The notes beneath the pieces are model-generated. The model was not told the DNA's origin and did no database searches. It saw only the letters and a program-made list of their open reading frames with translations. From Thuidium tamariscinum (Eukaryota > Streptophyta > Bryopsida > Hypnales > Thuidiaceae), in assembly GCA_947034885.2 (NCBI GenBank), contig OX344758.2, forward strand, positions 932,501-996,500: a stretch of DNA of 64,000 nucleotides. Reading direction: 5' to 3'. A program made the position numbers and the translations under genes. Numbering within the stretch: the stretch's first letter is position 1; every line of letters starts with the position of its first letter. Shown here one piece after another: positions 1,317 to 34,834 of the stretch.

Positions 1317-1374
1317 GTGAAAAAAAACTACAAATTCCTGGGCAGCTCCACCATCAACCTGGTGGACTTCTGAT

Positions 1375-9778: not shown

Positions 9779-10696
9779 TTAACCCCTAAAGGATTGTTGT
9801 CCCCTTGGGGGACAAAATGGATTTTGGGTAGGTTCCTATAACCTCAATTTTTGGTGAAACTTTTTGAAACTTTCTCAAAAGATAGAAAAAACTAATTATC
9901 TTTGTAAGAATATAATTTTTATTTCAATTGGTGCCTGTGAGCAAAAGTTATACCACAGAAAGCCCAAAACTAAACTTGTGGGCAATAAATTTTTTTTGCT
10001 AAAAGACAAATTAATTATAAAAAAATTCCTAAAATAATATATTTTTGTATACAAGTGAAGCTTTGATTTACTCTATTTAGACTATTATTGAGAAACCTAT
10101 AGACAATATTATTTTTTAGGCAATTTCAACATCTTCTCAATAAATACACTTGTAGTATTCATTTCTAAATGCAATGTTCACAATTTTTCAAAAAAAATTG
10201 TTGGAAAAGGTTTCATTTACCTATTAGAATAATCTCATAGTTGAGGTAATTGTGTTTCAATCCCATATTAGAGCTATTAACCATTTAGTATTTTTTTCAG
10301 TCTTGGACCTATTTCTACTTAACAATTTTTTCAATAAAGAAATCATTTGTTTTATTTTGTCAAATTTTTTTACTAGATCCTCAACTCAATTTTTGAACCT
10401 CAAAAGTTTTAGATTCAAGTTCTATAGTGTAAATTTTTTCCCAAAATGGCGGTTGAAGTCATCTAAAATTGTAGACTATAGCTCAAAATTTCTTTTTTTC
10501 TCAACTTTGAATGCTCATATCTTCTAATCTATATGGTCAAACTCCATGAAATTTTTATCACATGATTTCAAACAAGTTAAGTACAAGATCTTACAGTTAG
10601 ATTCCTAAAAAAAAAATTCTTAGATGAATGTAGTAGAAATGGTTGTTTTGAGTGATTTTTGACAAAATAAAATGGTCTTAGACCTATAGGGATTCA
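9779..10696 (-). mobile_element. TTAA-flanked CCCC/GGGG family, copy 1 (diverged)
   Basis: The left end TTAACCCCTAAAGG is intact. The right end 'cctatagggattca' is a decayed form of CCTTTAGGGGTTAA. The length is 918 bp, close to the other copies. The right third matches copy 3 (16429-17377): 'atatctt', 'aatctat', 'gaaattttt', 'aagatctt', 'gttttgag', in the same order. The left part is too diverged to align by eye. No coding capacity; the longest frame (10252-10527) is low-complexity. Confidence 0.6.
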
Positions 10697-10724
10697 AATT
10701 ATAGTTTTTTTAAGTTAAAAAAAT

Positions 10725-11300
10725 TAATGCAAATGTATACACCTATAAAATGAAGATAAGCACCAAAAGAAAATCATAGAAAAATTCTCTAAGTAGGAGA
10801 ATTGAAAAGTGCCAAATTTCAAGAAAATAGATACTTTGATGTTTTAATTAATAAATAATAGGAAACACACTCAAAAATAAAATTAAAAAATTGGATATTT
10901 GCAAGAACTTTATTGAGATAGTCATCTACCAAAAACACCCACCAAATTCTTTTTACACATTTCAAAATGCAAGTTGAAAGAGGCTCACTTTATGGACTTC
11001 TACACAACATATAATTACTTATTTCTGGAAATAGTGCATACAATGTCTAGAAGTCTATTAGAAGACCATTTCATCTAAATTTCAGCTTTAAATTCATTAA
11101 TTTGGATATTTGATAGTACTAAAAGAATCCAAATTGGCAAGTGCGACATACAATTGGTGGCTATTTTTGGATATTAAATTTTTATATTCCAAAAAATTAT
11201 TTAATGTGTATATTAGTCACAAGTACCTTGTCTATAAATTTCAAGTCATTTGGAGACAAAATACAAAAGTTATGGCCAAAAAACTAATCAACTAGAGACA
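10725..11300 (+). repeat. Dispersed AT-rich repeat C, copy 1
   Basis: Shares ordered landmarks with 13440-13900, indicating an old duplicated or dispersed repeat: 'aaatgtatacacct', 'aaattctctaagtagg', 'agtgcaaaat', 'gcatacaatg', and a 'aaatttggatatt' type block. The copies are strongly diverged and neither end is defined. No gene. Confidence 0.45.
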
Positions 11301-13439
11301 TGCGATAGAAAATAGTACAAGTGTTTATGCAATCACCCTATCAAAAATTCAATTATCACAATTTTTAATAGATTAATAGAGAGTTCCTTCTTGGAAATTA
11401 TTCTAGAATTAATTTGAGGCCATGGCAATTCAATTGATCCTGGAAGGCAATGGAAAAAAATTAACTTTTAGGCCACAAGGTTGTATATAAAAACTTTTTC
11501 TTTTCAATTTTTTCCTTTTCAATTTTTTCCTTTTCCTACTTTAGATTTTGCTATCACAACCATCTACTATTTGAATTTCAGAATAAGTATTTTCAAAATT
11601 TTGGTGAATTTATGAATATATCTTGGTGCTTTTATTTTTTTTAAAGTGATCTCTATAATTCAAGGTCTTTGAATCTTTTACAAAGTAGATTCAAGTTCTA
11701 ATTTGTAGTATAAATTTTTTCAATCTAGGCATCTATAGAATACTAAAATTTGTAAACTAAATTCTACATACTTTTAAATTTTGAAAACTTTTCAAATAAC
11801 AACTTACCATTAAATTTATGCTTGATAACCTTTTCATTGAACCTTTTGACTATGAGAGATTATCATTTAGGTGGGTAACCCCTCTTATATTTTGCATGCA
11901 CCTACAATAATGACCTATTTACCTTATAAAATTGCATAAAAGACTTGGTATTTTTAAAATAAAGGTAAGTGTTAGCGATTAATTGCAAAATATTAGTACT
12001 TATAATTATTCCAAGGGGGGCATTTTAAAATGGGGTACATCACTTATACCCCATTTTTTCCTTGCATCCCAATTTTTTCTTTAATCCTCATTTTTTTGTC
12101 CTTACACTCTATTTTTTTTCTACCACTTCATTGTAATTGTAAAAGTACATAGCAATTTCAAAGCAATGTTTAAATACATGTATAGAAGAAAAAAACTAAA
12201 ATTAGGTGAATGTATCCTCAAATAGACTTAAGAACTTCAAAATTGTTGTCAATCTTGTAGCATTCTTCAACATTCCAAAATTGAAAAGGCCCTAACTACT
12301 TGAAAACATTTATGTGTTCTACTCTATTCCACATAGTGTATAGGGAGGAAGTTTCCATGGGACTTAGCAGCTTAGATGGATCACCTTCTTACTTTCGAAA
12401 GTATACCTTAATCTTTATGGCGCTAGTATATTCATAAGTGGCTTATCTTCTACAAAATACAAAACCAAAGTTAAACTATGAAAAAAAGAAGATGAATCCT
12501 TTTGTTGCCATATTCAAATCACAACTTTGAAGTCCTCTAGTAGAAAAATTTGGTAGACACAATCCAAAATCCTAGACATTGGTGTATAACCTTCATAATT
12601 CCTAAATCCTAAATTTGGAGAAAGAAATTGGTAGCAAAACCAAATAACAAAAGGACTCTAAATACTAAACGCAAATAAGGAAATGGTAACAATGATAGGA
12701 CAATTACAATTTTCAAAACGGGTTTCAAACAAAAGTAGGCATTAAGTACTTACCTTCAACATGTAGAATTTGAAGAAGATTGAGGTTAATTCAACCTCCA
12801 AAGAGATGTATTTGTTGCACACTCCAAATTATAGAGACACCATCAAAACCAACAACAATTTTGTGTCTAGTTTTGTAACCAAGCAACAAGGCAACACCAA
12901 AAACTAAACTCAAAATTTAGAAATCTAGATGAAATATAGTCAATCCAATGCTCATAGTGCAATCACAACATAGACCCTAAGAGAACTTGGGTCACTTGAA
13001 CTTGGGTCACTTTGTTTTCTTTCATGTGCCTTCGTAACATAAATTCAATGCAATCATTAAATATACAACTTTGGATACTCAATTTTGAAGTATTTATTGG
13101 ACATATTGGACATATCCCTCAATGAAGTACCTTGTCTAAATTATGTACAGAATTTGAATACAAACTACCCTAATCATAATTTTAGAGCTTCTATACAATA
13201 ACCTATACACATTTTTTTCCTTCTAATATCCCTTTTTGTATATGCTGTACAATTACATTTACTATTCATATAATTCTATGGTATTATATGTAACCTTATA
13301 TTACATATAATCATGTTTCACTCTTTTAAGGGTCATTGCAAGAAACACTATCCATTTTCCATAGCATTTTATAGTACAACACTTTTTTCTTTGGGAGTAC
13401 TATTTAATTAGAAAAACAATTAAAACAATATGAAAAATA
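11301..13439. other. AT-rich intergenic, small tandem duplications only
   Basis: No gene seen. Two short direct duplications are visible: 'ttttcaattttttcc' twice near 11500-11530, and 'gaacttgggtcactt' twice at 12983-13012. The rest is AT-rich with no open frame of note. Confidence 0.5.
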
Positions 13440-13900
13440 TATCAAATGTATACACCTTAAAGAAGAAGGTACCCTATAAAGGAAAAGCTAAGGAAAATTC
13501 TCTAAGTAGGCAAACTAGAATAGTGCAAAATCTCACAAAAATGGGCGTATTTACATTTTAGTTTGTAAAAAATAGGAAAACTTATTTTTCTTAAATCTAA
13601 AAATTGGCCATTTGGGAAGAATTGATGGTGATGGTATTTCACCAAAAAAATAATCTAAGCATCATCAATGTCAAAAATTGCATACAATGGGAGTGCTATT
13701 TGCATGCATGTAGAGGACATAAAAGAATGTATTTTTAGATTTTCTTTGGTAGGAATATTCTTTTCTACTATACAAATGCACCATGAAAATTTCAACTTTA
13801 GATCATTAAATTTGGGTACTCCTAACATAGTAAAATCCCCTAAACATTAGTTTGTGACGAATTAATAAAAATGAATTTTAAATATAAAATGATTTTTTTT
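13440..13900 (+). repeat. Dispersed AT-rich repeat C, copy 2
   Basis: Diverged match of 10725-11300 in the same orientation, recognised by ordered short blocks ('aaatgtatacacct', 'gaaaattctctaagtaggc', 'tagtgcaaaat'). The limits are approximate. Confidence 0.45.
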
Positions 13901-14144
13901 TATTTCTGAAAAATAAGGGATGTAAAAACCATCAAGTTAGAGACGTCCACTAATTATTTTATATTCTTAAATCTTTTAATTCAAAAATTATAGCAAAAAA
14001 GAACAATGTCACTCCAATTGTGATAGGAAATAAGATTGGTGTTTCTTGCAAACACCCTAAAGCACCTTATAATATATGTAATTTGCTTACAAATTTTACA
14101 TAGAATGAATATATTACACCCTATAATTTATTGCACATAGTTCC

Positions 14145-14357
14145 TAAGTTTTTCCATAGTGTTGTTTTTCCATAGTGTTGATAGATTATTTATAACTATT
14201 TATTTGATGATTTATACAACTATTTATTTTTGGATGTTTATTTAATTATTTATTTTCTTATTTACTTGACAATTTATTAGACTATAAATAATACTAATCC
14301 TTAATTTTGACTATTCATTTGACTATTTATTTATTTTCAAAAAATACAAACTATTTA
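14145..14357. repeat. Degenerate ACTATTTATTT tandem repeat
   Basis: Begins with a direct duplication of 'gtttttccatagtgttg' and continues as a degenerate array of '(g)actatttatt' motifs at irregular spacing. It runs straight into the TTAA end of the next element at 14358. Non-coding. Confidence 0.55.
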
Positions 14358-15282
14358 TTAACCCCTTAAATTCATTGACTATGTTTACTTTAAAAACAGT
14401 ATAAAAAAAACATTTCTAGTTCTAATACCAATTGTTTTTAAGCATTTTTTGAGATTTGTAACTATAGGATTTTTCAATAAATTGGTTTGAGAGCATGGAA
14501 AAAATATTTCAGTGTTTTCCACCATACAGATTGCAAGATAATAGTGTTTGAATGCTAAAAAATAATTGTTTTACACTGCAAATAATAAGGAAGCTACACT
14601 TCAGAAGGCAACAATTGTATGAAAAATGATCCAAAACAGTTGTGCTTCCTTGACTTCATTGTTTAAGCCAAGTAGGGTACTTATAAAAAAAATTATTATT
14701 TGGAATTGTACAGCATATAGGAAAAAAATAGTAAGCAAAAAGAAGTAGCAAGTGATCTAAAATACAAAATTGTTAAGAATTTATTTATGAAATTAAATAA
14801 TGCCAATTCCAATGGTTGGAATTTTGTAATAAACAATACACATCCTATAATTTTATTTTTGCAAAAAATATTGAAAATTAAGTAAAATAAGGGACTTCAA
14901 AGTTTACTTTAGAGTACAGAATCTATAATTGCCTACAAACAAAAACTTCTCATAACTTTTGACTCATTGATAAAAATGAAATGATTCAAAGCTTCCCATG
15001 CATATATAAATGAAGAAAACCAATTTCATATTTTTGTGTTCAAAAAAGTGATTTTTTCCAATTTGCCCAAATTATTTATTTATGGGAAAAAAAAGTAGCA
15101 TAGTAGGCCATAATTTTTTACCTATATTTTCAAATGTCCTAATTTTTAGTACAAATGAAAAACATTCCTTGTTCCCACCTTCTATTAAAATTTACACTCA
15201 AAATATGAAAAACTTTAATTACATGTACTTGCCCAAAATCACTATATTGCCAAATTTAGCAAGCTTGTCGTTTAGGAATTAA
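14358..15282 (+). mobile_element. TTAA-flanked CCCC/GGGG family, copy 2
   Basis: The left end is TTAACCCCTTAAA and the right end TTTAGGAATTAA (a decayed GGGG), giving 925 bp. The body matches copies 4 and 5 in the same orientation. Shared blocks are 'gactatgttt' near the left end, 'ttggaattgtacagcatata' in the middle, 'cataacttttgactcattga', and 'caaatttagcaagctt' near the right end. There is no transposase frame; the copy is non-autonomous. Confidence 0.75.
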
Positions 15283-16428: not shown

Positions 16429-17377
16429 TTAACCCCTAAGGGACCAAACTACGTTTTTTAGCAACATAGCAGTTTTCAGCAGCTGACTATCAATGGAGTT
16501 TTTTTTCTTTTTCTTTGAAATTTTCGCAAAATATGCGCCCAAGGAATATCTTCAAGGCCCAACAATTTTCATAAATTTTGACTACATGGTTAGAAAATTA
16601 TTGTATGATATGTGATTTTCTCTATTCGGCAGGCAACCTGGGCAGTTAAAAAAACTTCTTCAAAAAACATTTTTTTAAGAAATAAAAATTTGAAACTCGT
16701 TCTTTAGATTTATATAGACATGGGAAGCTTTGAATCATGCCATTTGGATTAATGAGATGAAAGTTATGAGGAGTTTTAGTTTGTGGATAGTTTGTAGGAA
16801 GTTATGGAATGTCTACTCCAAAATAAACTTTAAAGTCCTTTATTTAATTCAATTTTTAATATTTAAAAAAACAAAACATTGGGTGCAGATTTTTTATTAC
16901 AACATTACAACCATTGGGATTGATATTTTTTAGTTAAATTAATTAATTATTAACAATTTAGTATTTTGAATCATTCTCTACTTCTTTCTACTTACTATTT
17001 GTTTTGTACATGTTGTACAATTCCAAATGATTTGAAAATTTTGAAGCATGTAGCCAATCTGACTTGAAGAATGAATCCAAAGAGTTACAACCATTTTGAA
17101 CATTTTTTTATACAAATGTGACCCTTTGAAGTGCAATTGCCTAGATTTCTGCAATGGTAAAAAAAGGATTTTTATAACTTCAAATACTAATATCTTGCAA
17201 TCTACCTGGTGGAAGTTTCTGAAATTTTTTCTACATACTCTCAAACCAGTGAACTAAAAGATCTTGTGGTTACATTATTCCAAAAATGCTTTTTTCCTAA
17301 AATTTGGTAGTTGTTCTAGAAATGACAGCTTTTGAGCAGTTTTGGTGATAACGTAGTCAAAAACCTTTTGGGGTTAA
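16429..17377 (-). mobile_element. TTAA-flanked CCCC/GGGG family, copy 3 (reverse orientation)
   Basis: The left end is TTAACCCCTAAGGGAC and the right end CCTTTTGGGGTTAA, giving 949 bp. The body is the reverse complement of copies 2, 4 and 5: the central block appears as 'acatgttgtacaattccaaa' preceded by 'cttctttctacttact', and 'ttagcaacatag' lies at the left end instead of the right. Both TTAA boundaries are intact and the flanks beyond them differ (ttctt versus atcca), so only TTAA is duplicated. Confidence 0.8.
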
Positions 17378-18080: not shown

Positions 18081-18088
18081 TCAATCTA

Positions 18089-19053: not shown

Positions 19054-19371
19054 TAAGGTAGGAGGCTCAAATTCCGACAGGGCATTTAGGACCAAACATG
19101 GCTCAGGGGTACATTTCGCTTTCTGCAATATTCCAAAATGTACAAATCGTGTACATTCTAGGTGGTGGTCGCTTTTAGAGCCCTATGGCTTTCAACTTCA
19201 AAATTTCATAACTAATTCCGCAAAGATCCAAAAAATATGAAACAACTTGGGTTGGATGTCATTTCCTCTTGTCTTTCAAAGAAAGTTTATTGGAAAATAT
19301 TTCAAGATGTTTTTTCTCCCCAAAATTCAGCTTCAGCACTAAGACTGTCGCTTTATGGACCTCCTACCTTA
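19054..19371 (+). mobile_element. Family B inverted-repeat element, copy B5
   Basis: This 318 bp element runs from TAAGGTAGGAGGCTC to GACCTCCTACCTTA, with the full family B body. It lies just left of the LINE insertion. Confidence 0.8.
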
Positions 19372-19677: not shown

Positions 19678-22600
19678 CTAGTTGAACGCTCCCATCTTTG
19701 GCCGAACTGTATTCCAGTTCATCTGGAGATGGGAGCGTTCTCCAAATAAGTTAGACTGCAGCCAGATATGATCAAAACGTCGTAAGAATGCGCCAGCCTT
19801 ATCCAGGTATAAGGCACAGAGGTTAGTTGCCTTGAGCCAGGCGACCCTTATGTGATCTGTAATTGCTTCCCACAAAGTCTGCTCCAGCCGCTCTTGGGAC
19901 CAAATATCATTGTTGAAGCAGATGGCGTTGCGATCCAGCCATGCGATCCAGATGACTGAACCTCTGAACAACGACCACATCGAAGAGCCCCTTTTGAGCC
20001 GCCTTGGTAATCTCGAGCCTAGGATGCATTGCTGCCATGTAAGCCCAGGCCAGAATCCATCAGAGGGGGGAATATGTAGAGCGTGGTAAAGCACTGAGAG
20101 AGCAAAGTTCCAAGCGTATCTTGTTTTCGCATAGTGGTGAAACCTGTGTAGGATAGTTTCCTCCTCTCCGGTTGGATAGCTTTGGCAGGTGGTGATGATA
20201 GTCGGGTTTGCAATCTTGCGCCAGGTATGAACAACGATCGCGTGGTGATACAGGGACCATATAAAGCCTGCCTCTTTTTGCGGTCGGTTTTTGTTCCACA
20301 CTTCCCCCCATTTTGGTTGGTACCCATGGACCAGAACACCTCTCCATTTCTCGTGGATAGGTTTACTGAGTTGCTTACGATTACAGATCAAAGAGCGCCC
20401 TAACTTTGATGTGTAAGCATGCAGCGGTCCTGCCTCTCCCCAAAACCACCGGCCTGGATCGAAAAGTAAATCGGCAATAATACCAACATAAAGGAGGGTC
20501 CCGTTACCAGTTTGTGTGACACGTACCCTTTTAAAGTGACCACCCACGACTTGATCTTCTGACCCTGATTGGATTGGTTGTGCTCTGAGTATAAGCGAGA
20601 CCCTCCCCACTGCGTACTGGATTTGTTTCAGGGGAAGTTCGACTTCTGCTTGATCAGACCTGATTCGAGGTCTGAACTTAGCTGATGTTGCAAAAATTAC
20701 TGATGGTAGCTGGTCTTCTTCGGAGCTAAATACTCCTATGTAATCCTGCTTGTGAGTAATGATCTCCTCTATACGTAGCATGCGAGACCATGTACTCGGC
20801 ATTGACGCCACCAACCTCTGGTACGCATGGCGTTCTCCCTCCAGTAAGTCGAACTTGTCCCAAATGTTCTCCCAGGTAAGGAAGGAGAGAGAAATTGGGT
20901 CCCAGATGTCTCTAATTTGGCACATTCCTTGTGACATCAAGTTAGCGTCTCTGTCAGCGGAGAAGCCGTGATGACTCCCGATAAATAACGTCGTCCACCA
21001 GAGAGAGGTTGACAAAACTTCATCCCCGTTCCCAGGAGGATGGGGCTCGATGTGTTTATTGAGTATTCTCCAAGACCGTATGATCTTGTCCCATATCTTT
21101 GAACCTTTTCTCGTTTTAAATTTTGACAAAAACATCCATTGAGGCGTTGCAGGCCACCTCCCGTGGGTCTTCGGATAACATTGAAGTAGTCGGAAACGCA
21201 GAATATATTGGAGGTTTGAGGAGCCCGGTAAGGTGGCTTTAATAACCCACTTGGCCAAGAGGGCATGCATCGCCTCTTCAGGGTCCATCAGATTGAGGCC
21301 TCCGACTGCTCGGCTTGCACAGCAGTCCGTCCAGCTGACCCTCGCACGGCAGTGGTGAGACGAGCCTGACCACAAGAAGTCCCTCAAATCTGCCCGAAGT
21401 TTCCTAATGATGGCTATCGATCCGCCCCACAAAGCAATGAAATACCAAAGAGTGCTTAGAAGTATCGAGCTAATGATAACCGCACGGCCTGCCAGGGAGA
21501 GATGTACCGTGGTCCAATACGTGATTTTCTTCTTAATCTTCGCTGCTAGAAACTCATCAATGTCTGTTGTGTGAAGATCGACACCAAATGGCGATCCTAA
21601 TAGCTTGGCCATTTGGTGTTCTACTGCCCACGGGCACTCGATCTGAGATAGCCACGGTGGTGCTGGGTCCTTCGCAAGCCAGTACGCCAGACTCTTGTTC
21701 CAATTAATTCGCAGTCCGGAAGCTAAGCCGTATTTGTCGATGAGACAAGAGAGACGCTCAAAGAACTTTTTCTCACCTTTGATCATGAAGTTAACGTCAT
21801 CTGCGTACTGGCTTATGAGTTGCTTCTCTACCTCCTCAGGAAGAATGATGCCTTCAAGTTCGCCTTTTTGTTGAAGATGTTTGGCTGCGGCGTTGAGTGC
21901 CTCTCCCACAAATAAGAACAAGTATGGAGCTAATGGGCATCCCTGCCTGACACCCCGTAATACAGGAAAGGCTTTGGAATCTGAACCATTTATATTAACT
22001 GAGGCTTCAGCGTTTGCAAACAGGAGTTTAGTAATACTCACAAAATTGCTTGGAATACCCATTTTCTCAAGAATCTTAAAGAGAAAAGGTAGATGAACAG
22101 TATCGTACGCTTTTTTGAAGTCCAGTTGGAGAAGGATCGCATCCTGTTTTGACTCTTTTGCCCAAGCGATCGTTTCCTGCAACAAGAGGATATTGTCTAG
22201 GATGTAGCGGGATGGAATGAATGCTGCTTGATCAGAGTTGATAATCTCTGGAAGAATGGGTTGAAGGCGCCTTTGAAGGGTTTTCGCTAAGATTTTGTAG
22301 GCCACGTTTAAAAGGCTTATCGGCCTCCAGTTGCACAGCTCCTCCCTGGGGCCACCTTTGTGTAGCAGTACTATTGAACCACGGTTCATTCCTGATGGAA
22401 GGTTCCCTTGGATAATTGCTTGCTCAATCATTTCAGTAAAATCCCTTCCGATCATGCCCCAATATTTCTGATAAAATTCGGTAATAATATCGTTAGGTCC
22501 TGGGCTCTTACCAGGTGCCATGGCGTCGAGGGCCAGTTTTAGTTTGGCCTCAGTTATGGGCCGAGATAAATTTTCTTTTGCATCCATGGGAATCTTGTCA

Positions 22601-24021
22601 GAGAGAAGACTAAGGAACTCGTCCATAGCATCTCTGCGATCTGGCGAGTCGGGTTCAGTTGTGTACAGGTCGCTGTAGAAGTCCGCGCAGATCTTTCTTA
22701 ATTCCTCCTGATCACTAATGTGTTGACCAAATTGGTCCTTAAGATTGGTGATGGCCGACGATGCCGATTTTTCCTTCACTACCCTGAAGAATTCGGCAGA
22801 TACCAGGTCACCCCGCAGCTTCCATCTAATTCTCGTTCTGATGCGGCGGCCAGAGACTTTCCTTGTTTCGACCTGTTGGAGGTGCGCTCGCGCTTTTCCA
22901 TGCTGGATCTGGGATGTTCGATCTCCCGGATTAGCCTGGAGTGCCTCCGACACCCCGGCCAGTTGTGTCTTGGCTTCATTCTCCTCCGCTCTTGAGTCCA
23001 GTGCTTTCTTTTTACAGAAAGCCCTATATGCCTTGGTTACAGCTCTCATTTTTTTGAAAAAAGATGAGGAGGGAGGGGAGTGGTACCATGCTTCCTCGAT
23101 GACCGGTCGAGCAGCTTCGAGCCAGTGAGCATTCATTTTCCAACAAGATGGTCGAGTTGGAGAATCGAGGAGATCAATCACTACAGTAACAGGAGAATGA
23201 TCCGACCAAGGGTTGTCACTACGAACCTTATATTCCACTATCTTACGGCTCGAAGAACCAGGCTCTTCTTTAAAAATATACACCCTGTCTAATCGAGCTA
23301 GTACTCTGTGACCATCCGTTCTAAGGTTATCCCACGAGAAGGGTAAGCTACCTGGAGATCTAGGGTAGTCCTCGATTTGGAGATGACGCTTAAGGTTGGC
23401 AAACAGCAGTCTTTCATTGAATGGTATCATTCTCCCACAAGGGTTGGTTTTGTCCTGTCTGCTTTCGACCATATTGAAGTCTCCAGCAACTATCCAACGG
23501 CAGTTTGGGGGAAGCTCAAGTATCATGCTTTCCCACAACTGGCACCTTGCATGTGAATCGTTTGGGGCATATACATTGATCACGCCAATATCACCTCCTG
23601 GAAGGCCCTGAAGAATAAACCATTGTGCCCTGTTTTCAAGAATTGTCCCACACTTAGCCATTGTGTGAGCAATTTTTGGGGAGATGAGTGTGATGATCCC
23701 TCCCTTTCCAGCGCTTGGGCCATTCGGGTCATTGTTATACCCTAAGCTAGCATCGGCAGTCCATGACTCAGCTTGGGGCCAAAGTAGCTTGCCGATGTTT
23801 CTAGCATCCTGATGTCTCAATTTGTGTTCCTGAATCATGATGATGTCAAGTTGAGAAAACGACTGAATATAACTACGGAGGAGAGAGACTGAGGTTTTGT
23901 CGTTCAAACCTCGAACGTTGAAGGAGAGGAGGTGTACAGTCATTGACGTTGATTTGTGGATGAGGATCGATTGGCGGGGTCCTCTACGCATTGAGATGAA
24001 GGTCCAGCTCTGTATCCCCAA
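19678..24021 (-). CDS. LINE ORF2: endonuclease / reverse transcriptase
   Basis: One uninterrupted frame of 1,447 codons, the usual size for a plant L1 ORF2. The likely true start is the Met at 23943, where the endonuclease domain begins (SFNVRGL). Upstream codons are probably just open. Endonuclease motifs follow in order: IQEHKL, GKGGIITL, NVYAPN, AGDFNMVE, LDRVY and SDHSPV, typical of the APE-like fold. Reverse transcriptase motifs are NWRPISLLN, QAAFIPSR, LDFKKAYD (Asp near residue 634), GVRQGCPLAPYLF and the catalytic YADD (residues 739-742). The C-terminal zf-RVT region is present near residues 1270-1300, but its CxxC reads CQSY and its last Cys is also Tyr. The protein nicks target DNA and reverse-transcribes the element RNA. 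It is intact in length; activity is doubtful because of the lost zinc ligands. Confidence 0.95.
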   Translation of the reverse strand: MGIQSWTFISMRRGPRQSILIHKSTSMTVHLLSFNVRGLNDKTSVSLLRSYIQSFSQLDIIMIQEHKLRHQDARNIGKLLWPQAESWTADASLGYNNDPNGPSAGKGGIITLISPKIAHTMAKCGTILENRAQWFILQGLPGGDIGVINVYAPNDSHARCQLWESMILELPPNCRWIVAGDFNMVESRQDKTNPCGRMIPFNERLLFANLKRHLQIEDYPRSPGSLPFSWDNLRTDGHRVLARLDRVYIFKEEPGSSSRKIVEYKVRSDNPWSDHSPVTVVIDLLDSPTRPSCWKMNAHWLEAARPVIEEAWYHSPPSSSFFKKMRAVTKAYRAFCKKKALDSRAEENEAKTQLAGVSEALQANPGDRTSQIQHGKARAHLQQVETRKVSGRRIRTRIRWKLRGDLVSAEFFRVVKEKSASSAITNLKDQFGQHISDQEELRKICADFYSDLYTTEPDSPDRRDAMDEFLSLLSDKIPMDAKENLSRPITEAKLKLALDAMAPGKSPGPNDIITEFYQKYWGMIGRDFTEMIEQAIIQGNLPSGMNRGSIVLLHKGGPREELCNWRPISLLNVAYKILAKTLQRRLQPILPEIINSDQAAFIPSRYILDNILLLQETIAWAKESKQDAILLQLDFKKAYDTVHLPFLFKILEKMGIPSNFVSITKLLFANAEASVNINGSDSKAFPVLRGVRQGCPLAPYLFLFVGEALNAAAKHLQQKGELEGIILPEEVEKQLISQYADDVNFMIKGEKKFFERLSCLIDKYGLASGLRINWNKSLAYWLAKDPAPPWLSQIECPWAVEHQMAKLLGSPFGVDLHTTDIDEFLAAKIKKKITYWTTVHLSLAGRAVIISSILLSTLWYFIALWGGSIAIIRKLRADLRDFLWSGSSHHCRARVSWTDCCASRAVGGLNLMDPEEAMHALLAKWVIKATLPGSSNLQYILRFRLLQCYPKTHGRWPATPQWMFLSKFKTRKGSKIWDKIIRSWRILNKHIEPHPPGNGDEVLSTSLWWTTLFIGSHHGFSADRDANLMSQGMCQIRDIWDPISLSFLTWENIWDKFDLLEGERHAYQRLVASMPSTWSRMLRIEEIITHKQDYIGVFSSEEDQLPSVIFATSAKFRPRIRSDQAEVELPLKQIQYAVGRVSLILRAQPIQSGSEDQVVGGHFKRVRVTQTGNGTLLYVGIIADLLFDPGRWFWGEAGPLHAYTSKLGRSLICNRKQLSKPIHEKWRGVLVHGYQPKWGEVWNKNRPQKEAGFIWSLYHHAIVVHTWRKIANPTIITTCQSYPTGEEETILHRFHHYAKTRYAWNFALSVLYHALHIPPSDGFWPGLTWQQCILGSRLPRRLKRGSSMWSLFRGSVIWIAWLDRNAICFNNDIWSQERLEQTLWEAITDHIRVAWLKATNLCALYLDKAGAFLRRFDHIWLQSNLFGERSHLQMNWNTVRPKMGAFN

Positions 24022-24347
24022 GAGTCGGTACCAGCTGGTGGAGGGGTGATGGATGGGGTGAGCGGTGAGGTCGATATGGCTCTGGCAGCAGCTCTTGCGC
24101 TCCTAACTGACTGAGTTAGTTCAGCTGCTGGCGGAGATTGAAGGGCTGTGGCTCCCTGTGGGGTGTTGACTTGGACGGCGACTGTAACCATCTGGGCATC
24201 TAGGGTTGGGCGGGTTCGCTCAGCCGTGAGTTTTTGAATCGCCTGATAAGCCCGTTCGTTGTCACGTACTTCCGCCCGACTGATTTGAGTTGGAGGCCGA
24301 TTATTGATCCCTGTCGATGCTCGACCTTTGCTTGGAGTTGAGCACGC
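23944..24347 (-). other. LINE ORF1-ORF2 junction
   Basis: About 400 bp between the ORF1 stop (24348) and the likely ORF2 Met (23943). Other minus-strand frames are open across it (24541-24200 and 24191-23940) and read Pro/Arg/Ala-rich sequence. ORF1 may originally have extended here, with a frameshift in this copy, or this may be an ordinary inter-ORF spacer. The sequence alone does not decide. Confidence 0.4.
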
Positions 24348-26309
24348 CTATTCTGTGGGGAGAAAGGATATGGATCTCGGCAGGAGCGTGTTGGAAACAT
24401 TTGACTTCGGGCTTCTAGCACCAAGTTGGACTGGAGATAACTGTTTGTTTTGCGCATCTTCAAACGCCTCTTCTTCATGCTGAGACGGGCCAGACTCTTC
24501 CTCCAATGACGTGTCTTCCTCGGTGAAGTCCGTGAAGTCAAATTTCTTGCCCTGATCTTCTCTCCTAGGGTTCGCAGTGATTCCTAGCATTTCCAGAGTG
24601 ATACTGGCCGGTTCTAATGTGAAGCCGTGCTGCGGGTGTACTGGCCCTTGTTCAAGCTGTGACAGCCTGACCGGGGTCTCCTTTGGCGCTGTGATCGTTA
24701 AGACGTCTCTCAAGCCTGAGCTCGTAGATACCTTTGAGCTCGTCTGATCATTTGAGTCTGTATGAGGTATTGCCTCAAACTCCTGGGGTTGTGCTAAGGA
24801 GTTGACATCAACTTCGGTTGCCAGATAGATCATGTAGTGTTCAATTTCCGCTTCAAGCTCCATGTCTACATCCACCTCCTGAAGGGGTTCATCCGTGACA
24901 TCTGAGATGTGAACCGGATTGTCTGCTGGAGTTAGGGGCGGGGGCAAAGGAAGTGCACTTCTATCCAATCTGCCTTGCGCAGCTGAGGGTGTCTCCGTAA
25001 GTGGGGACGTGTGTGGCGGTGTTTGTAGCTCATGTGTCGCAGAGCCAGTATGAGGATCGGCCGATGGCAGCCTGGGACCGGGCCGTTGATCGATCGACCC
25101 TCCGTTTGGAGATGCTGAGACTCCTGGGTATTCGACGTCCATAGCCATGGGGCCTGTCGATCTAAGATCCTGACCGCCTTGGACCGGAGTGCGAGATCTA
25201 CGGTTTCTTGGTTTGGAAGGCTTCATGTGTGGTTTAAAGGACCTGGATTTGTAAGAAACCCGGATAAAACCTTCCTCATTAGGTGAACTCGTTTGGGATG
25301 ATGACGGGTACTCCCTGTTGTCGCCCTTGTACGGTCTCGAACTCCCTCTCTGCTGACGTTGACATGGGTGGTCCTACCGGTCGTGATGAGCTCTAGACCT
25401 GGGCGGAAAAGACCTTTGATGCTTAGGGTTCGGTGCTGGGAAGATGCCCTTATTGGGGCAGTGCGCGTCCTCGTGAAAGCTGCCCGGGCATCTATGACAG
25501 GTCATGACTTCCACTTCATATTCGATCAGAATTTCTGAATACTGGCCAGCTACATTCGCAACCAACAGTCTCGAAACGTGCCCCATCGCTGGGTCAATTG
25601 CGACGCAAAATCTTGGATCTTCTTTCGGGAATGTGCTCTGGTCTTCCTCCAGTACGGTTCCCACAATGCTCGCTAGTTTTTTTGCTTCATGGTGATGGAA
25701 CTCTAGCGGAAGGTTTTTTAAGTTTATCCAGCGCGGAATCCCTAGGCCCATCGGCTTGCTCGGATTAAACACTGGAATCCAGCGTTGAAAAAACGCCGTC
25801 CCTGTTTGAAGACGACAGGGTGACAGGGACAGTACCTGGCGGACTGTGTCGTACGACTCAAACTTGACAAAATGGAATCCCCCCCCGGCATCTCTATGCA
25901 ATACTATTCTAGCGTTAATCAGCTCTTCGAGTTCCCTAATCCAGGTTTCATGATTGAAGGACTTTGGGAGGTCGGTCGCGAATCTGATTATGACAATATG
26001 TTGCTTGAGATATGCAGTCTCCTTCCTTAATGCCACCATATCGAGGTTAGTGGCTGGGACCTCTACACAATCCCGGACAAGCAGACCGTTCGAATTCTTG
26101 AACAGACCGGCCGGTAGCTCCTCGATTCCGTTCGCTTGCTGACTTCCTCGGTCGGGATCTTGATCCAACCCTGCGAGATCTGAAGCTAGGACCCTTCGAC
26201 ACAGACGAGAGGTTGATTTGGTTGCCCCGACTTTTTTGGATCTGAGATCCGGTTCACTCTGCACGGCAGCGGCGTAGTTTGCCATAGACATAGCTAACTT
26301 ACTTTTCAA
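24348..26309 (-). pseudogene. LINE ORF1 (DUF4283 / CCHC nucleic-acid-binding protein), one in-frame stop
   Basis: Two open segments, 26309-25374 and 25226-24348, lie in the same frame and are separated only by a TAG at 25374-25376 and the 49 open codons up to a later Met. Together they make 654 codon positions. The first part carries a DUF4283-like fold region (around GFHFVKFESYDTV and PRWINLKNLPLEF) followed by a CCHC zinc knuckle, C271-x2-C274-x4-H279-x4-C284. The second part is acidic and Ser/Pro/Thr-rich, as in the variable C-terminal half of plant L1 ORF1. The role in the family is binding element RNA. The TAG probably truncates the protein after the knuckle in this copy. A natural two-ORF arrangement is less likely because the frame continues. 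Confidence 0.8.
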
Positions 26310-26580
26310 GTTCTAGAAACTAGGTTTGGATAATCCCGCATTAAGCTTAAGGTTATCAATCGCCTGATAAAACATGACGCAAACGTAGACAATTCTTGCA
26401 GAACTTTAGACGTCGATCGATAGTGTATCTTTGTGAAGAAACAGCTCGAACCTTGGTGCGGCAGCACCGTACAGCCCTGCTCTCACTATCCGCTCCTAAA
26501 GTTTTGGAGCGCAATCGTGAAGTCTGACAGTGGTTTTCAGACGTTCCTTCCAACTTCGGGATTAATCTCATCATTATTTT

Positions 26581-26754: not shown

Positions 26755-27432
<678 letters not shown>

Positions 27433-28417: not shown

Positions 28418-29354
28418 TTAACCCCTAAAGGTTTTTGACTATGTTTTCACCAAAAGTGCTCAAAAACTGCCATTTCTAATACAATTGCAATTTTTTTTGA
28501 CTCATGTAACCGTAGGATCTTGTAGTAAGGTGGTTTGTAAACACGTGGAAAAAATTTCAGAAATTTCCACCATGTAGATTGCAAGATATAAGCATTTGAA
28601 TTGACAAAAATTGTTTTTTTATCCCTGCAAAAATCCGGGCAGCTGCACTTCACAAGGTCACATTTGTGTGAAAAAAATTCAAAATGGTGGTAACTCTTTG
28701 AATTCATACTTCAATGCAAGTTGGCTACATTCTCAAAATATTTCAAACCATTTGGAATTGTACAACATATAGGAAAAAACAAGTAAGTAGAAAGAAGTAA
28801 AAAATGAGCCAAAATACTAAATTGTGAACATTTTATTCATGGAATTGAAAATTTTCAATCCCAATGGTTAAAATGTTGTAATAAACAATCTACACCTTCT
28901 GTTTTTATTTTTTTCCAAAAATATGAAAAATTGAATTAAATGAAGAATTTCAAAAAAAATTGTATTGTAGAGATTGTGTAACTGGCCGCAAACTACCCCA
29001 AACTCAAAATCTTCATAACTTTTGACTCATTGATTGGAATGTATTGATTCAAAGATTTACTTTTAGATTAAAATCTAATAAACAAATTTGAATTTTTTTT
29101 TTTTTTTTTAAAGTAATTTTTGAAGAAGTTTTTTTATCTGCCCAGGCTACTTGCCGAGTAAAGAAAACAACATATCCTACCATAACTTTAAAATCATGTA
29201 GTAAAAAGTTATGAAAATTGTTGGGCCTCAAAGCTACTCATCGGGCACATGTTGTATCAAAATTTCAAAGAAAAAAAATAAAAACTCCATCTGTAGTGAG
29301 CTGCCCAACAAATTTATGTTCTCAAAAAACGCAGTTTAGGGCTTTAGGGGTTAA
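28418..29354 (+). mobile_element. TTAA-flanked CCCC/GGGG family, copy 4
   Basis: This is the best-preserved pair of ends: TTAACCCCTAAAGG on the left and GCTTTAGGGGTTAA on the right, 937 bp apart. The body shares 'gactatgtttt', 'gtaggatcttgtagtaaggt', 'ggaattgtacaacatatagg', 'cataacttttgactcattga' and 'ttgtgtaactggc'-type blocks with copies 2, 5 and 6 in the same orientation. Outside the TTAA the flanks differ (taattaaa versus atattgg), so the duplicated target is exactly TTAA. No open frame of transposase size. Confidence 0.85.
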
Positions 29355-29850
29355 ATATTGGATGCAGATGTTGCCCAATTGCATCAAATTTTGTAGTAGT
29401 GCAGTTTCCATAGTTCCCAATTGTGAGGGAACTCATAGCATTAGAAGAGTTTTGAGGGCATTGGAAGACTGCGGGTTCTCAGATTGCAGGAATGCAGAAA
29501 CATAGTCAGCTAACATAATTGAGAGAGTGCCACATCATTAAAAAAATTGAACATTTTTTGAATTTCTTTTTGTATTTCAGGACCCCAATTTATATTTATT
29601 TAAGTTTTTTTTATAATTGTTTGATAACTACTAGCCTGACAATAGTCAATAGTTTCAAGAATAGCCATGAGATAGTCTTCCAATGCCCTCAAAACTCTTC
29701 TAATGGTCTTGTTTGGAGCCAACTCTCCTCTAATGGTTGTGAACTCAAGAATGTAAAATTACCCATTTCATTTATAAAAGAAAAAAACGGACTGTAAAAT
29801 TGCAAAAGACAAGTGAATCTGCTCCCTGAAGGTTGGCAATAAGCCAATGT
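29355..29850. other. Intergenic, no gene seen
   Basis: A pair of inverted fragments ('actcttctaatg' near 29690 and 'cattagaagagt' near 29440) could belong to a small degenerate element. No gene recognised. Confidence 0.4.
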
Positions 29851-30125
29851 AAGGTAGATACACCCAAAATGGCACGTGACCTTAAAGCGCCATCTACAAT
29901 GTGCATACATTTCCGAAACCAGTCATGTACCCAGACTGTAGATGGCCATTTCAAAAATAGACTTTGACTATTGACAACTTTTGCATACGGTATCCAAATC
30001 CTATGTTCTTTGGTGCGTTGGAACATGTTTTCACTCGCCAACAAGACTATATAAAAATCTGAACAGCATGATGACAGGAACTAGGCACAGTAAGAATAAG
30101 TGGCCATTTTAGGTGTACCCACCTT
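29851..30125 (+). mobile_element. Family A inverted-repeat element, copy A4
   Basis: This 275 bp copy has left end AAGGTAGATACACCCAAAAT and right end 'attttaggtgtacccacctt', in the same orientation as copies at 662-936 and 5217-5487. It is well preserved 24 kb away from the others, showing that the family is dispersed and not a local tandem. Confidence 0.85.
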
Positions 30126-31144
30126 ATTTTGTATTCCCTAGGACATGTGTACTCCAGTAGTACAATTCCAATCACCAGCACTTGCTAGAAGAATACAAGT
30201 TTGCTACACACGACACCATAAATTGGTATGGAATGAATGTCCTTTATTGGGATCCCAATTTCCTTTCCTTTCTTCCCATTTCTTTTAATAAAGGAAGTGA
30301 GTGTATTGGAGTTTGCACTTGATGGCTCCGCCGTCTCTTTGGAAACCTGACCGAGGGAGGGGGTCAAGTACGGACATGGGGTGGGTTTTGGGTAGGGCAA
30401 GACAAACTTTTTATTTATTTTTCTTTCCTTTTCTTTAGACATCAATAACGTATCTTGGGTGGGTGAGTGAGTGAGGGCTGGACCCACTTCCAGTAGTCAA
30501 AGGGTGTGTGTGTGTCTATAACTTATATACAAACAACAAAATCGGATGGGCTGCTGGAATGATCAAAACAGCTGGAACTGCAACCAATCTCCTGCAGTCG
30601 GCGGGCGGGCGTCTTCAATTCTGGGCGGTTTTTAAAGGGCTATGGTTTGCACCATTAGTTGAAAAATAGGACAAAAAGGAATTGGGGCATTTTAAAGGTC
30701 GGAGTGTGTGCGACGCCTCCAAACTGGCTTCACCATAACGGACCCACTATTTGGCACCTGATTGATCAATCAATGAATGGGTGCCAGCCAAAGGCCAACC
30801 AGGAAAACCTACAGGCAGGCTCACGGGGGGAGGGGGGCTTTCTGGTTTGGTGACTTGGTACCTGGCGGTGACAAGAATTGGCATGAATGTCCGCCGTCTG
30901 GGCACAGAATTTTGGGAGCGTGACTAAAAAGCAGAGAAGTTTCTTATCATTCTACCTGAGAATTCTCTTTTTGGTAGCAGTAGAATTAAGATGGTTGTGA
31001 AACATAACAGTGCTTACCAATGAGGCATGTGGGGCCCTTTTTGTGTCCTTGAAAAGGAGATCCCTTAAAAAGGAGGACAATTCCGGTCCAAAAGATTGGT
31101 GTGAAAGAAGCAAATGTTGGAGGAATGGTTCAACTATTTATGCC
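30126..31144. other. Intergenic, less AT-rich, no gene recognised
   Basis: A minus-strand frame of 100 codons (30487-30185) is Lys/Pro-rich and matches nothing I know. No exon chain could be built. A short GT run occurs near 30506. Confidence 0.4.
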
Positions 31145-31500
31145 TTAGAGCATCCTCATGAGACTCAGGGACTGATTTAGGGAATGAGCAAACTCAGGGA
31201 ATGGCCAGGCGTAGCCAAATTTAATGATGGCTTGGCTAAATGGTGAGAAGTTGGTTGGGCTTGGTGTGTTTTAAAAAAAAATTAAATCCTTTTTTCAAGG
31301 CACATTAGCATTGATTATGAGTTTATTTTCTCGGAATCCACAACAAAGCTTCTTGAATTTTTGAAATTGTTTGTTCCCTGTGCTCATTCACCGTGTTGGG
31401 GTGGGGGGAATTTCTTTGGCTAGGCCTGGGCTTCTTCAATGACTCCACAAGCATCCCCCAGTGGCGCATTTCTCATACGCAACCCGTGGGGATGCTCTTA
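31145..31500. mobile_element. Inverted-repeat element with AGAGCATCC ends
   Basis: The left end is TTAGAGCATCCTCATGAG and the reverse complement of the right end reads TAAGAGCATCCCCACGGG, about 356 bp apart. The interior has no supported gene. The ends match those of the fold-back at 2779-2924, so these are likely the same type of non-autonomous element at different lengths. Confidence 0.6.
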
Positions 31501-32625
31501 TGAATTTAAATGGTAAATCCCATCCTTAATGTCTCTGTTGGGAGGTAGACTTTAGAATATAGAACCAACATGTTTCTTTCTTCAAGAAATTTTGAGGTCC
31601 TTATATGATGATAAGGTAGTTTTTGTACCCTCATTCTATAGTTGGGTGACCCTTATTAGGGTTAGCACCCCACTAACACCTAGGTTTCTAGTAAAGCATA
31701 TTAGCTTCTAAAGACCATTGCTTGGTTATACAATATCATGTTGTTCACATAGTACAAAGGGACATCTCTTAAAAGACCCCCGACTAGTCTAGTTTGTCAT
31801 GTTGGGTCTCCTTGTGGATCTATTCTCTAGTCAACATTGATCAGATGTTTTCCATAGCAATTGTTGGATGTACATTAGTTCAATGGTGATTCCTTCATTC
31901 CTTCAAGTATTTCAAGGTTGTATTAGGGGAGAATTGAACCTCCAAAGAAGCCGCTTTGTAATGCAAAAGATTGGATGGAAAGAACCTTTTCAACTTACTA
32001 ATTGGGCCAAGAATTGCATATTGAATTCAAAAATTTATCATCATTACCCAATCCATCTCCATAGTCTTATAACTATTTGGCAAAAAAGAGCTTTTTTATC
32101 TCACTAATTATGCCAAGAATTGCATGATAAACTCAAAAATTGTCATCATTACCTAATCCATCTCCAAATCTCATGATGATTCAATCATCAAAGATGGAGC
32201 ACATGCCTCCTGCAAATATCTATAAGCCAAGTGGATACATGCAATCCCACATGGAAGTAGTAATGATGATGTGGGCACTCTCATACTCATTTAATTTGTA
32301 TTAAAATTAGTAAGAAAACTCAAAGCCTCTTTACGGGTCAATTTTCCCCTAATGTGGAACTTGCAAGCTATTATATATAGAGTAGGGAAATTACAAGCTT
32401 CGTTGAATCATTTAAATTATGGATGGAACATCATTTATTGACTTTGGACCAAAGAGAAAGAGGCTTTACATTGACAAAAGCAACATAAAGAGTGAATATA
32501 AAGCCAATGTTTTGAAAAACGAGATAGTACTAGAGTATGCTACAAGGGACATAGTCTTTAAGGGTATAGCTACTTATTGATATAACATATGCATATGCAT
32601 TGAAATTTGGGTGGGATTATGCCAC
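31501..32625. other. AT-rich intergenic, no gene seen
   Basis: A partial internal duplication is visible: 'cttactaattgggccaagaattgcat' near 31995 and 'tcactaattatgccaagaattgcat' near 32100. No gene. Confidence 0.45.
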
Positions 32626-33551
32626 TTAACCCCTTTAGTTCTTTCACTATGTTTCTACCCAAAAGAAAAAAAATTGCCATTTTTAGTATATTAAGAACCA
32701 GATTTTGAAAAAAAAAAATTTAGATCCACGCAACCATGATATATTGTAGTATACTCACCTGAAAACATATGGAATTTTTTTTAGAAGTTTCCATAACATG
32801 AATTGCAAGATATTAGCATTTGAATTCACAAAAAATCCTTTTTTAACCTTCCAAACAATTAGGCCATTACACTGCAGAAGCTCACATTTTCATGAAAAAA
32901 ATTCAAAATGGTGGTGCTTCTTTGGATTCATTCTTCAAAGTAAGTTGACTATATGCTTGAAAAATTTCAAATCATTTGGAATTGTACAACATATAGGAAA
33001 GAAATAGTATGTAGAAAGAAGTATAGAATGCTTCAAAATACAAAATTGTTAAGAATTTAGTTATGAAATTAAAAAATTCAAATTCAAATGTCTATATTGT
33101 TGTAATAAATAATCTACATCATAAAATTTTATTTATTTTTTAAATATTGAAAATTGAATTAAATAAAGGACTTCAAAGTTAATTTTAGAGTAGAAAATCC
33201 AAAACTACCTACAAACAAAAACTTGTCATAACTTTTGACTCATTGATCACAATGGAATGAATTTAAGCTTTCCACATAGACATAAGTCTAAAAAAACAAT
33301 TTCAAATTTTTATTTTAAAAAAATCATTTTTTATTTGCCCAAACTACCCATTTAGGGAAAAAAGGAACATACTAGGCTATAAATTTTTATTTTTATTTCC
33401 AAATCACATGATTTTTAGTGCACATGAAAGATATTCCTCATCCACACCTTCTATTAAATTTTGGGCCCCAAACATGGAAATCTCTAGTCACATGTACTTG
33501 CCTGAAATTACTATGTTGCTAAATTTAGCAAGCTTATCCTTTAGGGGTTAA
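32626..33551 (+). mobile_element. TTAA-flanked CCCC/GGGG family, copy 5
   Basis: The left end TTAACCCCTTTAG and right end CCTTTAGGGGTTAA are 926 bp apart. The body aligns with copies 2 and 4 along its length: 'cactatgtttct', 'ggaattgtacaacatatagg', 'tagaaagaagta', 'cataacttttgactcattga', 'aaatttagcaagctt'. The flanks beyond TTAA differ. Non-coding. Confidence 0.85.
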
Positions 33552-33914
33552 ATTTTTTTGGTGCTCTTATTGATTTTGTTCATTCAAATTGGAAGATTAC
33601 ATTTCAAGATAATTTGTTTTTTTACTTTAAGAATCTCAATATTCCGGAAATTCACTAGGAATTTATAAATTGTAGTCGAATATATTTGAGCTTTTTGGAA
33701 TAATAATTAACCTTGACTACAAAGCTATCAAGAAAACAAGAAAAAAAATTCAAGTTCTTTAAATCAAATATTTAATTATAGAGAGTTTGAAATTGGTTTT
33801 TTCTTGGATTTTTAACATAGTGATTTGGATTGCAATAACTCAAAGTTCCAAAATATTCTATTGTTAGTACTTATTATTCCATTTTACAATCCTATTTTTG
33901 GTGAATTTAATCTC

Positions 33915-34834
33915 TAAATCAATTCAATGTTTTAGATTCAAAACTATTTCATAGTATTCAAATCCAAATTAAGGCTAGAATCTTCATCTATGTTTATTCA
34001 TTAACAAATTTAATTGTAGGATCTTGTAGTTACTTGTTAGAGTAACCATTCTAAAATTCAAAATAAGAAACTTTACCATATACAAGATCTTGATGCTTGA
34101 ATTTCAAATAGACTAGTATCTTCAACTCTTTCCAGTGGTTAAGTTTCACTTTTCAAACTTTTTCTACAAAATGTATGATTCCTACAACTTGAACCTTTAC
34201 ATAATATGTTGAAAAAATAAGCTAGAAATATATACCAAAAATATAAAAATAACTTCAACCAAAAATATTTCATATTTGTATTTGAAAAATCCAATGAGTA
34301 GATAAAAGTTGAAAATGCTTTGAACTGCGAAATTGTTGAGATTTTAGTTATAGAATTAAAAAATTCCAATTCTAGTTGTTGTAATGTTGTAACAAAAATA
34401 TTTGTGTCCAATGATTTTATTTTTTTCAAAAATATTGAAGATTAAAAAAAGAATTTTAAAGTTTATTTTACAACAAAGATTTTCTTAACTATCTACAAAC
34501 TAAAATTTCTCATGATTTTCATCTTGTTCATCAAATAGAATGATTTAAAGCATTCTATGTATACAAATCTAGGAAACTAAGATCAAACTTTTATTTCTTA
34601 AAAAAATGACTTTTTCTATGGCACTTGGGTTGCCTAGGGAGCCATTGAAACTACATATTATACAATAACTATCTAACTATGTAGTCAAAATTTATGAAAA
34701 TTGTTGCACTTTAAAGTTATTATTCAACAATATATTGTTTGAAAATTTAAAAAGAAAAAAAAAATCCAATTTATAAATGGATGCTTGAAAAGGCTATGTT
34801 GCGAGAAAAAAAAGATAGATCTATTAGGAATTAA
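33915..34834 (+). mobile_element. TTAA-flanked CCCC/GGGG family, copy 6 (diverged)
   Basis: The right end 'tctattaggaattaa' resembles the eroded right end of copy 2. The body shares 'gtaggatcttgtagttac', 'agttatagaattaaaaaatt', 'tgttgtaatgttgtaacaaa' and 'aaatattgaagatt' with copies 2, 4 and 5 in the same order and spacing. The left terminus is not recognisable, so the start is set by spacing. It lies only about 360 bp from copy 5. Confidence 0.6.

What the first reader, a model, noticed from the sequence alone, without database searches (positions are those of the whole stretch)
9779..34834. TTAA-flanked CCCC...GGGG repeat family with piggyBac-like termini in a plant genome
Six copies of 918-949 bp (9779, 14358, 16429, 28418, 32626, 33915) share TTAA-CCCCTAAAG ends and an AT-rich body, in both orientations. 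In the intact copies 3, 4 and 5 the flanks beyond TTAA differ, so TTAA is the only duplicated target. A 3-bp TWA duplication does not fit, because the left flank ends TAA while the right begins TTA. TTAA duplication plus CCC/GGG ends is the signature of piggyBac, which as far as I recall is poorly documented in land plants. None of the copies is coding, so an autonomous partner must exist or have existed.
Basis: partly seen in the sequence, partly recalled or inferred. Interest (0 to 1): 0.75.

Follow-up and report, generated by a model that had tools for sequence, protein, structure and literature searches.

The report
piggyBac mini-transposons abundant in a moss
The repeats are short, non-coding piggyBac jumping genes that number in the thousands in what appears to be a moss genome, which also carries large and partly very young piggyBac elements with transposase genes, a kind of transposon well studied in animals but little described in land plants.

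Summary
The repeat family is real and the piggyBac reading holds. In the window's genome (363 Mb) the terminus TTAACCCCTAAAG occurs 12,133 times, against 8 for the reversed pattern. Of 27 distinct near-full-length copies read, 21 have exact TTAA on both sides and 26 are within one base per side; flanks outside are mixed. One copy has TTAT on both sides, so four bases are duplicated. The consensus is 951 bp without a frame above 92 aa. One insertion has paralogous empty sites without a gap. The same genome holds at least 116 piggyBac transposase matches (PF13843). One 7,251-bp element has TTAACCCCTAAAG at both ends, an 891-aa frame with the aspartate triad and C-terminal cysteines, and end sequence homologous to the repeat's ends. 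So the repeats are piggyBac MITEs derived by internal deletion. Another family has 99.9-100% identical copies at different sites, so transposition is recent. Light-harvesting proteins point to a moss. Papers seen call piggyBac occasional in plants or list it without detail. A conserved helical module upstream of the transposase has no relative found. New member of a known kind, unusual host.

The parts
28418..29354 (+). youngest MITE copy in the window, both ends exact, TTAA on both sides (28418-28421 and 29351-29354)
   Evidence: 92.3% to consensus; 40 scored genome copies at 88-100%
16429..17377 (-). older full-length MITE copy, TTAA on both sides
   Evidence: 79.4% over the whole consensus
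32626..33551 (+). older MITE copy, TTAA on both sides; its last 173 bp match the transposase-bearing element's N-side end at 79%
   Evidence: (E 3e-39)
14358..15282 (+). older MITE copy; its last 138 bp match the same end at 78%
   Evidence: (E 1e-26)
9779..10698 (-). degenerate, divergent family member; exact TTAACCCCTAAAG at 9779 only
   Evidence: 68% over consensus 3-206, E 2e-16, plus two short pieces
33915..34838 (+). old remnant; homologous part 34284-34762, left end not recognisable
   Evidence: 66.7% over consensus 370-875, E 3e-33

Best explanation
The repeats are a non-autonomous (MITE-type) piggyBac family. Each copy is an internal-deletion derivative of a larger piggyBac transposon: about 380 bp from the transposase 3' end and about 145-216 bp from the 5' end, with a middle part of unknown origin, and no coding capacity. 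Copies moved by cut-and-paste: a piggyBac transposase supplied in trans binds the CCCCTAAAG ends, excises the element and inserts it into TTAA, which is duplicated. The nearest candidate source is the clade that includes the 7.25-kb element at C7:15191397-15198647. Shown: ends, 4-bp TTAA flanks, one insertion with empty sites, shared end sequence, transposase class, copy number. Inferred: that this clade's transposase moved the MITEs, the cut-and-paste chemistry, and present-day activity.
Against: MITE and partner share only their ends, at 67-79% identity, and the weakest of the three consensus matches (808-951, 44.6 bits) is only a little above the best shuffle (37.4), so the present partner is a relative, not the exact source; consensus 378-735 is unexplained. 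The right end of copy L007 reads TAGG, not TTAA. None of the six displayed empty sites reads TTAA itself (CTAA four times, CAAA, CTTA), so the target there is inferred; three other joined-flank matches (L012/L011, L018, L021) have 1-2 gaps near the site. The structure model is weak (mean pLDDT 48). No expression or transposition was tested.
Confidence: 0.95

Rival explanations
1. The MITEs are piggyBac elements, but were amplified by a different piggyBac clade of the same genome (for example the 5.1-kb family whose one end reads TTAACCCCTAAACGCC), through the shared CCCCTAAA ends.
For: Many transposase families here end in CCCCTAAA-like sequence.
Against: Among the loci fetched, the MITE shares longer, collinear end sequence with C7:15193588 and, more weakly, with L049/L068, L061, L067 and L081, whose transposase matches all end at profile position 347; most transposase loci of the genome were not examined at their ends.
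Confidence: 0.2
2. Another superfamily with TTAA duplications (Kolobok or Sola3; their TTAA targets are recalled) made these repeats.
For: TTAA duplication alone does not single out piggyBac (recalled).
Against: The partner's transposase matches only PF13843 among 24,736 Pfam models and only piggyBac chains in the PDB.
Confidence: 0.01
3. A Tc1/mariner- or PIF/Harbinger-type MITE with TA or TWA duplication and a preference for TTAA.
For: A TA duplication in a perfect TTAA target looks the same in the joined flanks; these two are among the five accepted plant MITE classes (PMC12550479, passages).
Against: TTA left / TAA right is not a direct TWA repeat; L016 has TTAT on both sides, so the fourth base belongs to the target; the sequence-related coding element has a piggyBac transposase.
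Confidence: 0.01

Closest known systems
piggyBac (IFP2) of Trichoplusia ni and piggyBat of Myotis lucifugus
   Same: TTAA target, CCC...GGG ends, transposase with aspartate triad (LTIDE / TDN / GVD aligned) and C-terminal cysteines
   Different: Host is a land plant; the two elements measured are 5.1 and 7.25 kb against 2,472 bp for T. ni piggyBac (PMC10140906, passage); long variable N-terminal part; an extra conserved module upstream
piggyBac MITEs of animals (for example the coral group in PMC2872659, search listing only)
   Same: Non-coding, short, TTAA-flanked derivatives moved in trans (recalled)
   Different: Host; length 0.92-0.95 kb; thousands of copies in one land-plant genome
[quoted passage not shown] PMC12550479, passages)
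   Same: High-copy non-coding TIR elements
   Different: TTAA target and piggyBac partner fit none of the five; 951 bp also exceeds that study's 800-bp limit
Lanisha elements (PMC12730594, passages; the moss link is recalled)
   Same: Cut-and-paste transposons
   Different: That paper groups Lanisha with EnSpm/CACTA relatives, not piggyBac

Membership tests
piggyBac superfamily | insertion into TTAA with TTAA duplicated | tested here: met
   21 of 27 distinct copies exact on both sides, 26 of 27 within one base per side, L016 TTAT/TTAT; one insertion with gapless empty paralogues
piggyBac superfamily | short TIR beginning CCC / CCY | tested here: met
   13-bp repeat TTAACCCCTAAAG at both ends of the consensus
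piggyBac superfamily | related element with DDE_Tnp_1_7 transposase and three catalytic aspartates | tested here: met
piggyBac superfamily | C-terminal cysteine-rich domain | tested here: met
   C842, C845, C863, C868, H873 invariant in 8 of 8; the full C/H pattern was not modelled
piggyBac superfamily | transposase fold | tested here: met
piggyBac superfamily | precise, footprint-free excision | not testable with these tools
   needs a second individual or an assay
MITE (non-autonomous derivative) | non-coding, high copy, ends shared with a coding element | tested here: met
   longest stop-to-stop frame 92 aa; 12,133 termini; end homology
PIF/Harbinger | 3-bp TWA target duplication | tested here: not met
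   TTA / TAA are not direct repeats
Tc1/mariner | TA duplication, transposase of that superfamily | tested here: not met
   coding relative is PF13843 only; L016 TTAT on both sides
Kolobok / Sola3 | own transposase families | tested here: not met
   only PF13843 found in the coding relative; no dedicated search for these families in the genome

The most novel reading that the evidence does not exclude
This land plant, most likely a moss, carries an old, highly diversified and still mobile piggyBac lineage. Its transposase domains have diverged to 37-76% amino-acid identity between families with synonymous sites saturated, at least one family has near-identical copies at different sites, and the elements carry an additional conserved five-helix module without known relatives, upstream of and perhaps joined to the transposase. 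piggyBac would then be a major cut-and-paste superfamily in a land plant, with its own MITE class.
Probability: 0.6. Interest if true: 0.75.

Novelty: new member of a known kind. Interest (0 to 1): 0.62.

Why it matters
A recent survey of 207 plant genomes sorts MITEs into five superfamilies (and one special group) without piggyBac (PMC12550479, passages), so such elements could be misfiled or missed. Near-identical transposase-bearing copies at different sites mean that natural piggyBac moved recently in a land plant, where an animal-derived piggyBac is used as a borrowed tool (reference titles seen in PMC12732532). That gives a native source of plant piggyBac transposases and a case for asking how silencing, horizontal transfer and MITE birth work for this superfamily outside animals.

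Tried and rejected
Lanisha of mosses was considered and dropped: the passages seen place it with EnSpm-like elements. Two convergent TIR pairs, C1:42206-47240 and C1:2652544-2656813, were read as possible coding elements. The first is a MITE with a foreign 4.1-kb insert, the second two MITEs in opposite orientation. The L040 family was considered as partner: it shares the first bases only, and the MITE match in L042 is a neighbouring old MITE into whose end TTAA that element inserted. Joining the upstream module to the transposase frame by simple splicing was tested: A78 (the C7 element) and L067 share a GGTAAG donor-like site after the module and a CAG acceptor-like site before PPRRS, but the phases do not fit at that pair of sites in either element (two other AGs of eight fit in L067, none of three in A78), so the gene structure is open. 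The module's fold search found nothing (53 matches at E <= 10, 0 at E <= 0.001); Pfam gave one match at E 0.11 for one of three proteins. dN/dS ratios could not be given because synonymous sites are saturated. The full-length transposase model is weak (pLDDT 48) and serves only as support. Other plant genomes could not be searched: the tool states that G000 has no relatives here, and the genome collections offered hold prokaryotes, viruses, phages, plasmids and metagenomes. Absence from print is not claimed beyond the searches (one search was useless: the Pfam name matched no listed paper). The 2017 piggyBac survey (DOI 10.1093/gbe/evw292, recalled) and the Ceratodon genome paper (DOI recalled) are not held.

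Full report
Observation. The window is C10:932501-996500 of an unnamed 363-Mb genome in 19 contigs. Using the copy at 28418-29354 as query, the window holds full-length or near-full-length relatives at 16429-17377, 14358-15282 and 32626-33551, and degenerate ones at 9779-10698 and 33915-34838. The 13-base end TTAACCCCTAAAG with up to two mismatches occurs 10 times in the window, against 2.46 in shuffles. Only 28418 has both ends exact; 33915 has no recognisable left end.

Genome-wide. The genome search scored 40 of 6,962 first-look candidates. All 40 are near full length at 88-100% identity, and the other 21 of its 61 matches are short hits to the element's central palindrome. I read 28 of the 40 with flanks (L001-L028; L011 and L012 are inverted duplicates of one locus, so 27 are distinct). 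In the 27, each of the four bases TTAA is conserved in 25-27 of 27 on either side, each of the next nine (CCCCTAAAG / CTTTAGGGG) in 24-27, and the bases just outside are mixed. TTAA is exact on the left in 25 and on the right in 22, on both sides in 21. Five of the other six differ by one base on a side; the sixth, L007, has lost its right end (TAGG). L016 reads TTAT on both sides, directly outside CCCC and GGGG: a 4-bp direct repeat at a variant target, which assigns the fourth base to the target and not to the element (two parallel mutations are the alternative). The consensus is 951 bp, 31% GC, with a longest stop-to-stop frame of 92 aa; the 28 copies are 91.8-97.5% identical to it, median 96.1%. 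The exact 13-mer occurs 6,104 times forward and 6,029 reverse, the reversed control 4 and 4 times; at two ends per element this means at least about 6,000 elements with such an end (inference; other families may share it). Only the first 100 places are listed. Among them 16 convergent pairs lie 923-956 bp apart; 2,000 strand shuffles gave a mean of 4.0 and a maximum of 10.

Empty sites. I joined the flanks of 32 full-length insertions with one TTAA and compared them with all DNA held (the window copy 28418 is counted twice, as window and L001). One insertion, L013, lies in another repeat and has eight spanning matches. The six I displayed (window 7063-7234, 988-1162 and 19194-19371; L002, L062, L030) align with no gap within 12 bases of the junction, over a single 4-mer that reads CTAA (four), CAAA and CTTA. 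Three further spanning matches (L012/L011 as one, L018, L021) have 1-2 gaps near the site and are less clear. The result fits a 4-bp TTAA-type duplication.

Transposase. PF13843 (the piggyBac catalytic domain) gave 116 scored matches of 658 candidates, best E 5.7e-80, all over the curated cut-off, with none in 14 control genomes. L040-L043 are 99.9-100% identical from a TTAA inward, with four different flanks outside: recent transposition. The whole L040 element is 5,096 bp, with ends TTAACCCTGAAACGCC and, at the other end, TTAACCCCTAAACGCC, and a 1,023-aa frame. L034-L036 (99.7-99.9%) and L030/L037 (99.7%) are two further sets of near-identical copies, but they are identical over the whole 4.1-4.2 kb read, so duplication in a larger block is not excluded for them. 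In L042 the element sits exactly at the end TTAA of an old MITE.

Partner of the MITE. I fetched the flank beyond the transposase C-terminus for 20 and then 14 further of the 116 matches. 19 of 20 and 10 of 14 show an end beginning TTAACCC in the right orientation; 34 shuffled windows give a mean of 4.2 and a maximum of 9 in 100 rounds, and the wrong orientation occurs in 3 of 34. The end of C7:15193588 reads TTAACCCCTAAAGTTCCTTCACTATGTTTTAAC, close to the left end of the MITE. The whole element, C7:15191397-15198647 (7,251 bp), has TTAACCCCTAAAG at both ends. MITE consensus 1-246 and 295-377 align collinearly to its C-side end (133 and 50 bits) and 808-951 to its N-side end (44.6 bits); 200 dinucleotide shuffles reach at most 37.4 bits. 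Older window copies match the N-side end better: 32626 at 79% over 173 bp (E 3e-39), 14358 at 78% over 139 columns (E 1e-26). A second relative, L049 with its presumed N-side end in L068, shows the same: MITE 736-951 at 70% to the N-side end and collinear pieces at the C-side end. L081 shares MITE 45-223 at 69% at the matching distance from its end. So the MITE is made of both ends of such an element with the coding middle lost; the middle 378-735 has no source found.

Age and diversity. In the catalytic domain, 35 of 36 pairs among nine frames have 37-76% amino-acid identity while the proportion of synonymous differences is 0.78-0.92, against 0.15-0.46 non-synonymous; the remaining pair (L030/L037) is 99.5% identical. 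Synonymous sites are saturated, so no ratio is given, but the pattern is that of long-term purifying selection in many lineages, next to a family with near-identical copies.

An extra module. Upstream of the transposase frame, A78 (the C7 element), L067 and L040 carry a related stretch (A78/L067 52%, E 2e-39; A78/L040 24%, E 1e-5). With 89 aa as query it has 123 matches in the genome at E <= 0.001 (150 of 271 candidates scored). 38 of the 116 transposase matches have one 1.5-3.0 kb upstream on the same strand; the only two other placements within 8 kb are cross-pairs of two adjacent inverted elements. The other 85 module matches lie by no listed transposase match; most transposase candidates beyond the 116 were not scored. 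A model shows five helices with block means of 76-89 pLDDT over residues 31-120 (overall 68) and no PDB match at E <= 0.001. Whether it is the N-terminal part of the transposase is open.

Host. The genome has 49 light-harvesting (PF00504) matches of 62 candidates; among the 14 controls only Synechococcus rings. Its Lhca3-like protein matches 6l35, 7xqp, 7ksq and 8htu best (342-344 bits) and all other chains at 331 bits or less. Another (L087) matches 7xqp_9 and 8htu_9 at 304-305 bits, with only one other chain at E <= 1e-75. L088 had no match at that cut-off. For L084, apart from a 620-residue LHCI-2 chain (9vfj) that ranks first, 7xqp and 8htu lead, but by about one bit only. That those entries are Physcomitrium patens, and that the chain-9 protein is the moss Lhcb9, is recalled. 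Moss genomes with 11 chromosomes and 275-413 Mb exist (PMC11503002, PMC11992514, PMC11803377; search listing and abstract starts). The species is not identified.

Literature. PMC12550479 (passages): MITEs of 207 plant genomes including four bryophytes, five superfamilies plus a special group, length limit 800 bp; piggyBac has 0 occurrences (listing). [quoted passage not shown] PMC8086355, PMC10140906 (passages): found in fungi, plants and animals. PMC4438587 (passages): PiggyBac among superfamilies found in all groups, land plants included. PMC6890710 (passage): C-fern table with 1,230 PiggyBac entries, 122 kb. PMC10794571 (passages) lists PiggyBac among superfamilies. PMC7466625 (passages) reports two mariner-type DNA elements as transcribed in P. 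patens; piggyBac 0 occurrences in the listing. PMC10619864 (passages) concerns 'piggybacking' of gene expression only. So presence in plants has been stated in surveys; a description of intact, recently mobile land-plant piggyBac elements with their MITEs was not found in the listings.

Verdict. It is a new member of a known kind in an unusual host, with signs of recent activity and one unexplained conserved module.

Noticed in passing
G000:C7:15197122-15197388 and 122 other places: Conserved helical module of about 90 aa, 1.5-3.0 kb upstream of 38 of 116 piggyBac transposase matches; no Pfam match at E <= 0.1 and no PDB-fold match; perhaps an N-terminal exon of the transposase.
   Followed up: partly
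window 19678-26312, minus strand: Long open frames of a LINE (reverse transcriptase ORF of 1,474 aa stop to stop, with smaller frames upstream), plant L1-like by eye; not scanned against any library.
   Followed up: no
window about 41455-48082, minus strand: Probable exons of an Integrator complex subunit 1-like gene (PF22929, E 1e-7 on 45769-46422; the four other frames scanned gave no match).
   Followed up: no
window 988-1162, 7063-7234, 8240-8403, 19194-19371: A second dispersed repeat family, also in L002, L030, L037, L062; it is the one into which the MITE copy L013 inserted.
   Followed up: no
L016 (C5:7712110-7714057): A MITE copy with TTAT on both sides instead of TTAA: a variant 4-bp target, or two parallel mutations.
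   Followed up: partly
L045 about 758-4875 (C1): A 4.1-kb insert with TGTGAGCGCTC / GAGCGCTCACA ends inside a MITE copy: another mobile element, not piggyBac by its ends.
   Followed up: no
G000:C10:1004637-1005749: A piggyBac transposase match (one in-frame stop) lies 8.1 kb to the right of the window, its element end reading TTAACCCCTCAACGCCCC.
   Followed up: partly
window 26870-27003: 67 perfect TA dinucleotide repeats.
   Followed up: no
L011 / L012 (C9:10035648-10037591 and C9:10029562-10031505): Two MITE copies with the same flanks in opposite orientation about 5 kb apart, an inverted duplication.
   Followed up: no
MITE consensus 424-474: A 51-bp imperfect palindrome in the middle of the element, also seen in 21 genome hits.
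   Followed up: no
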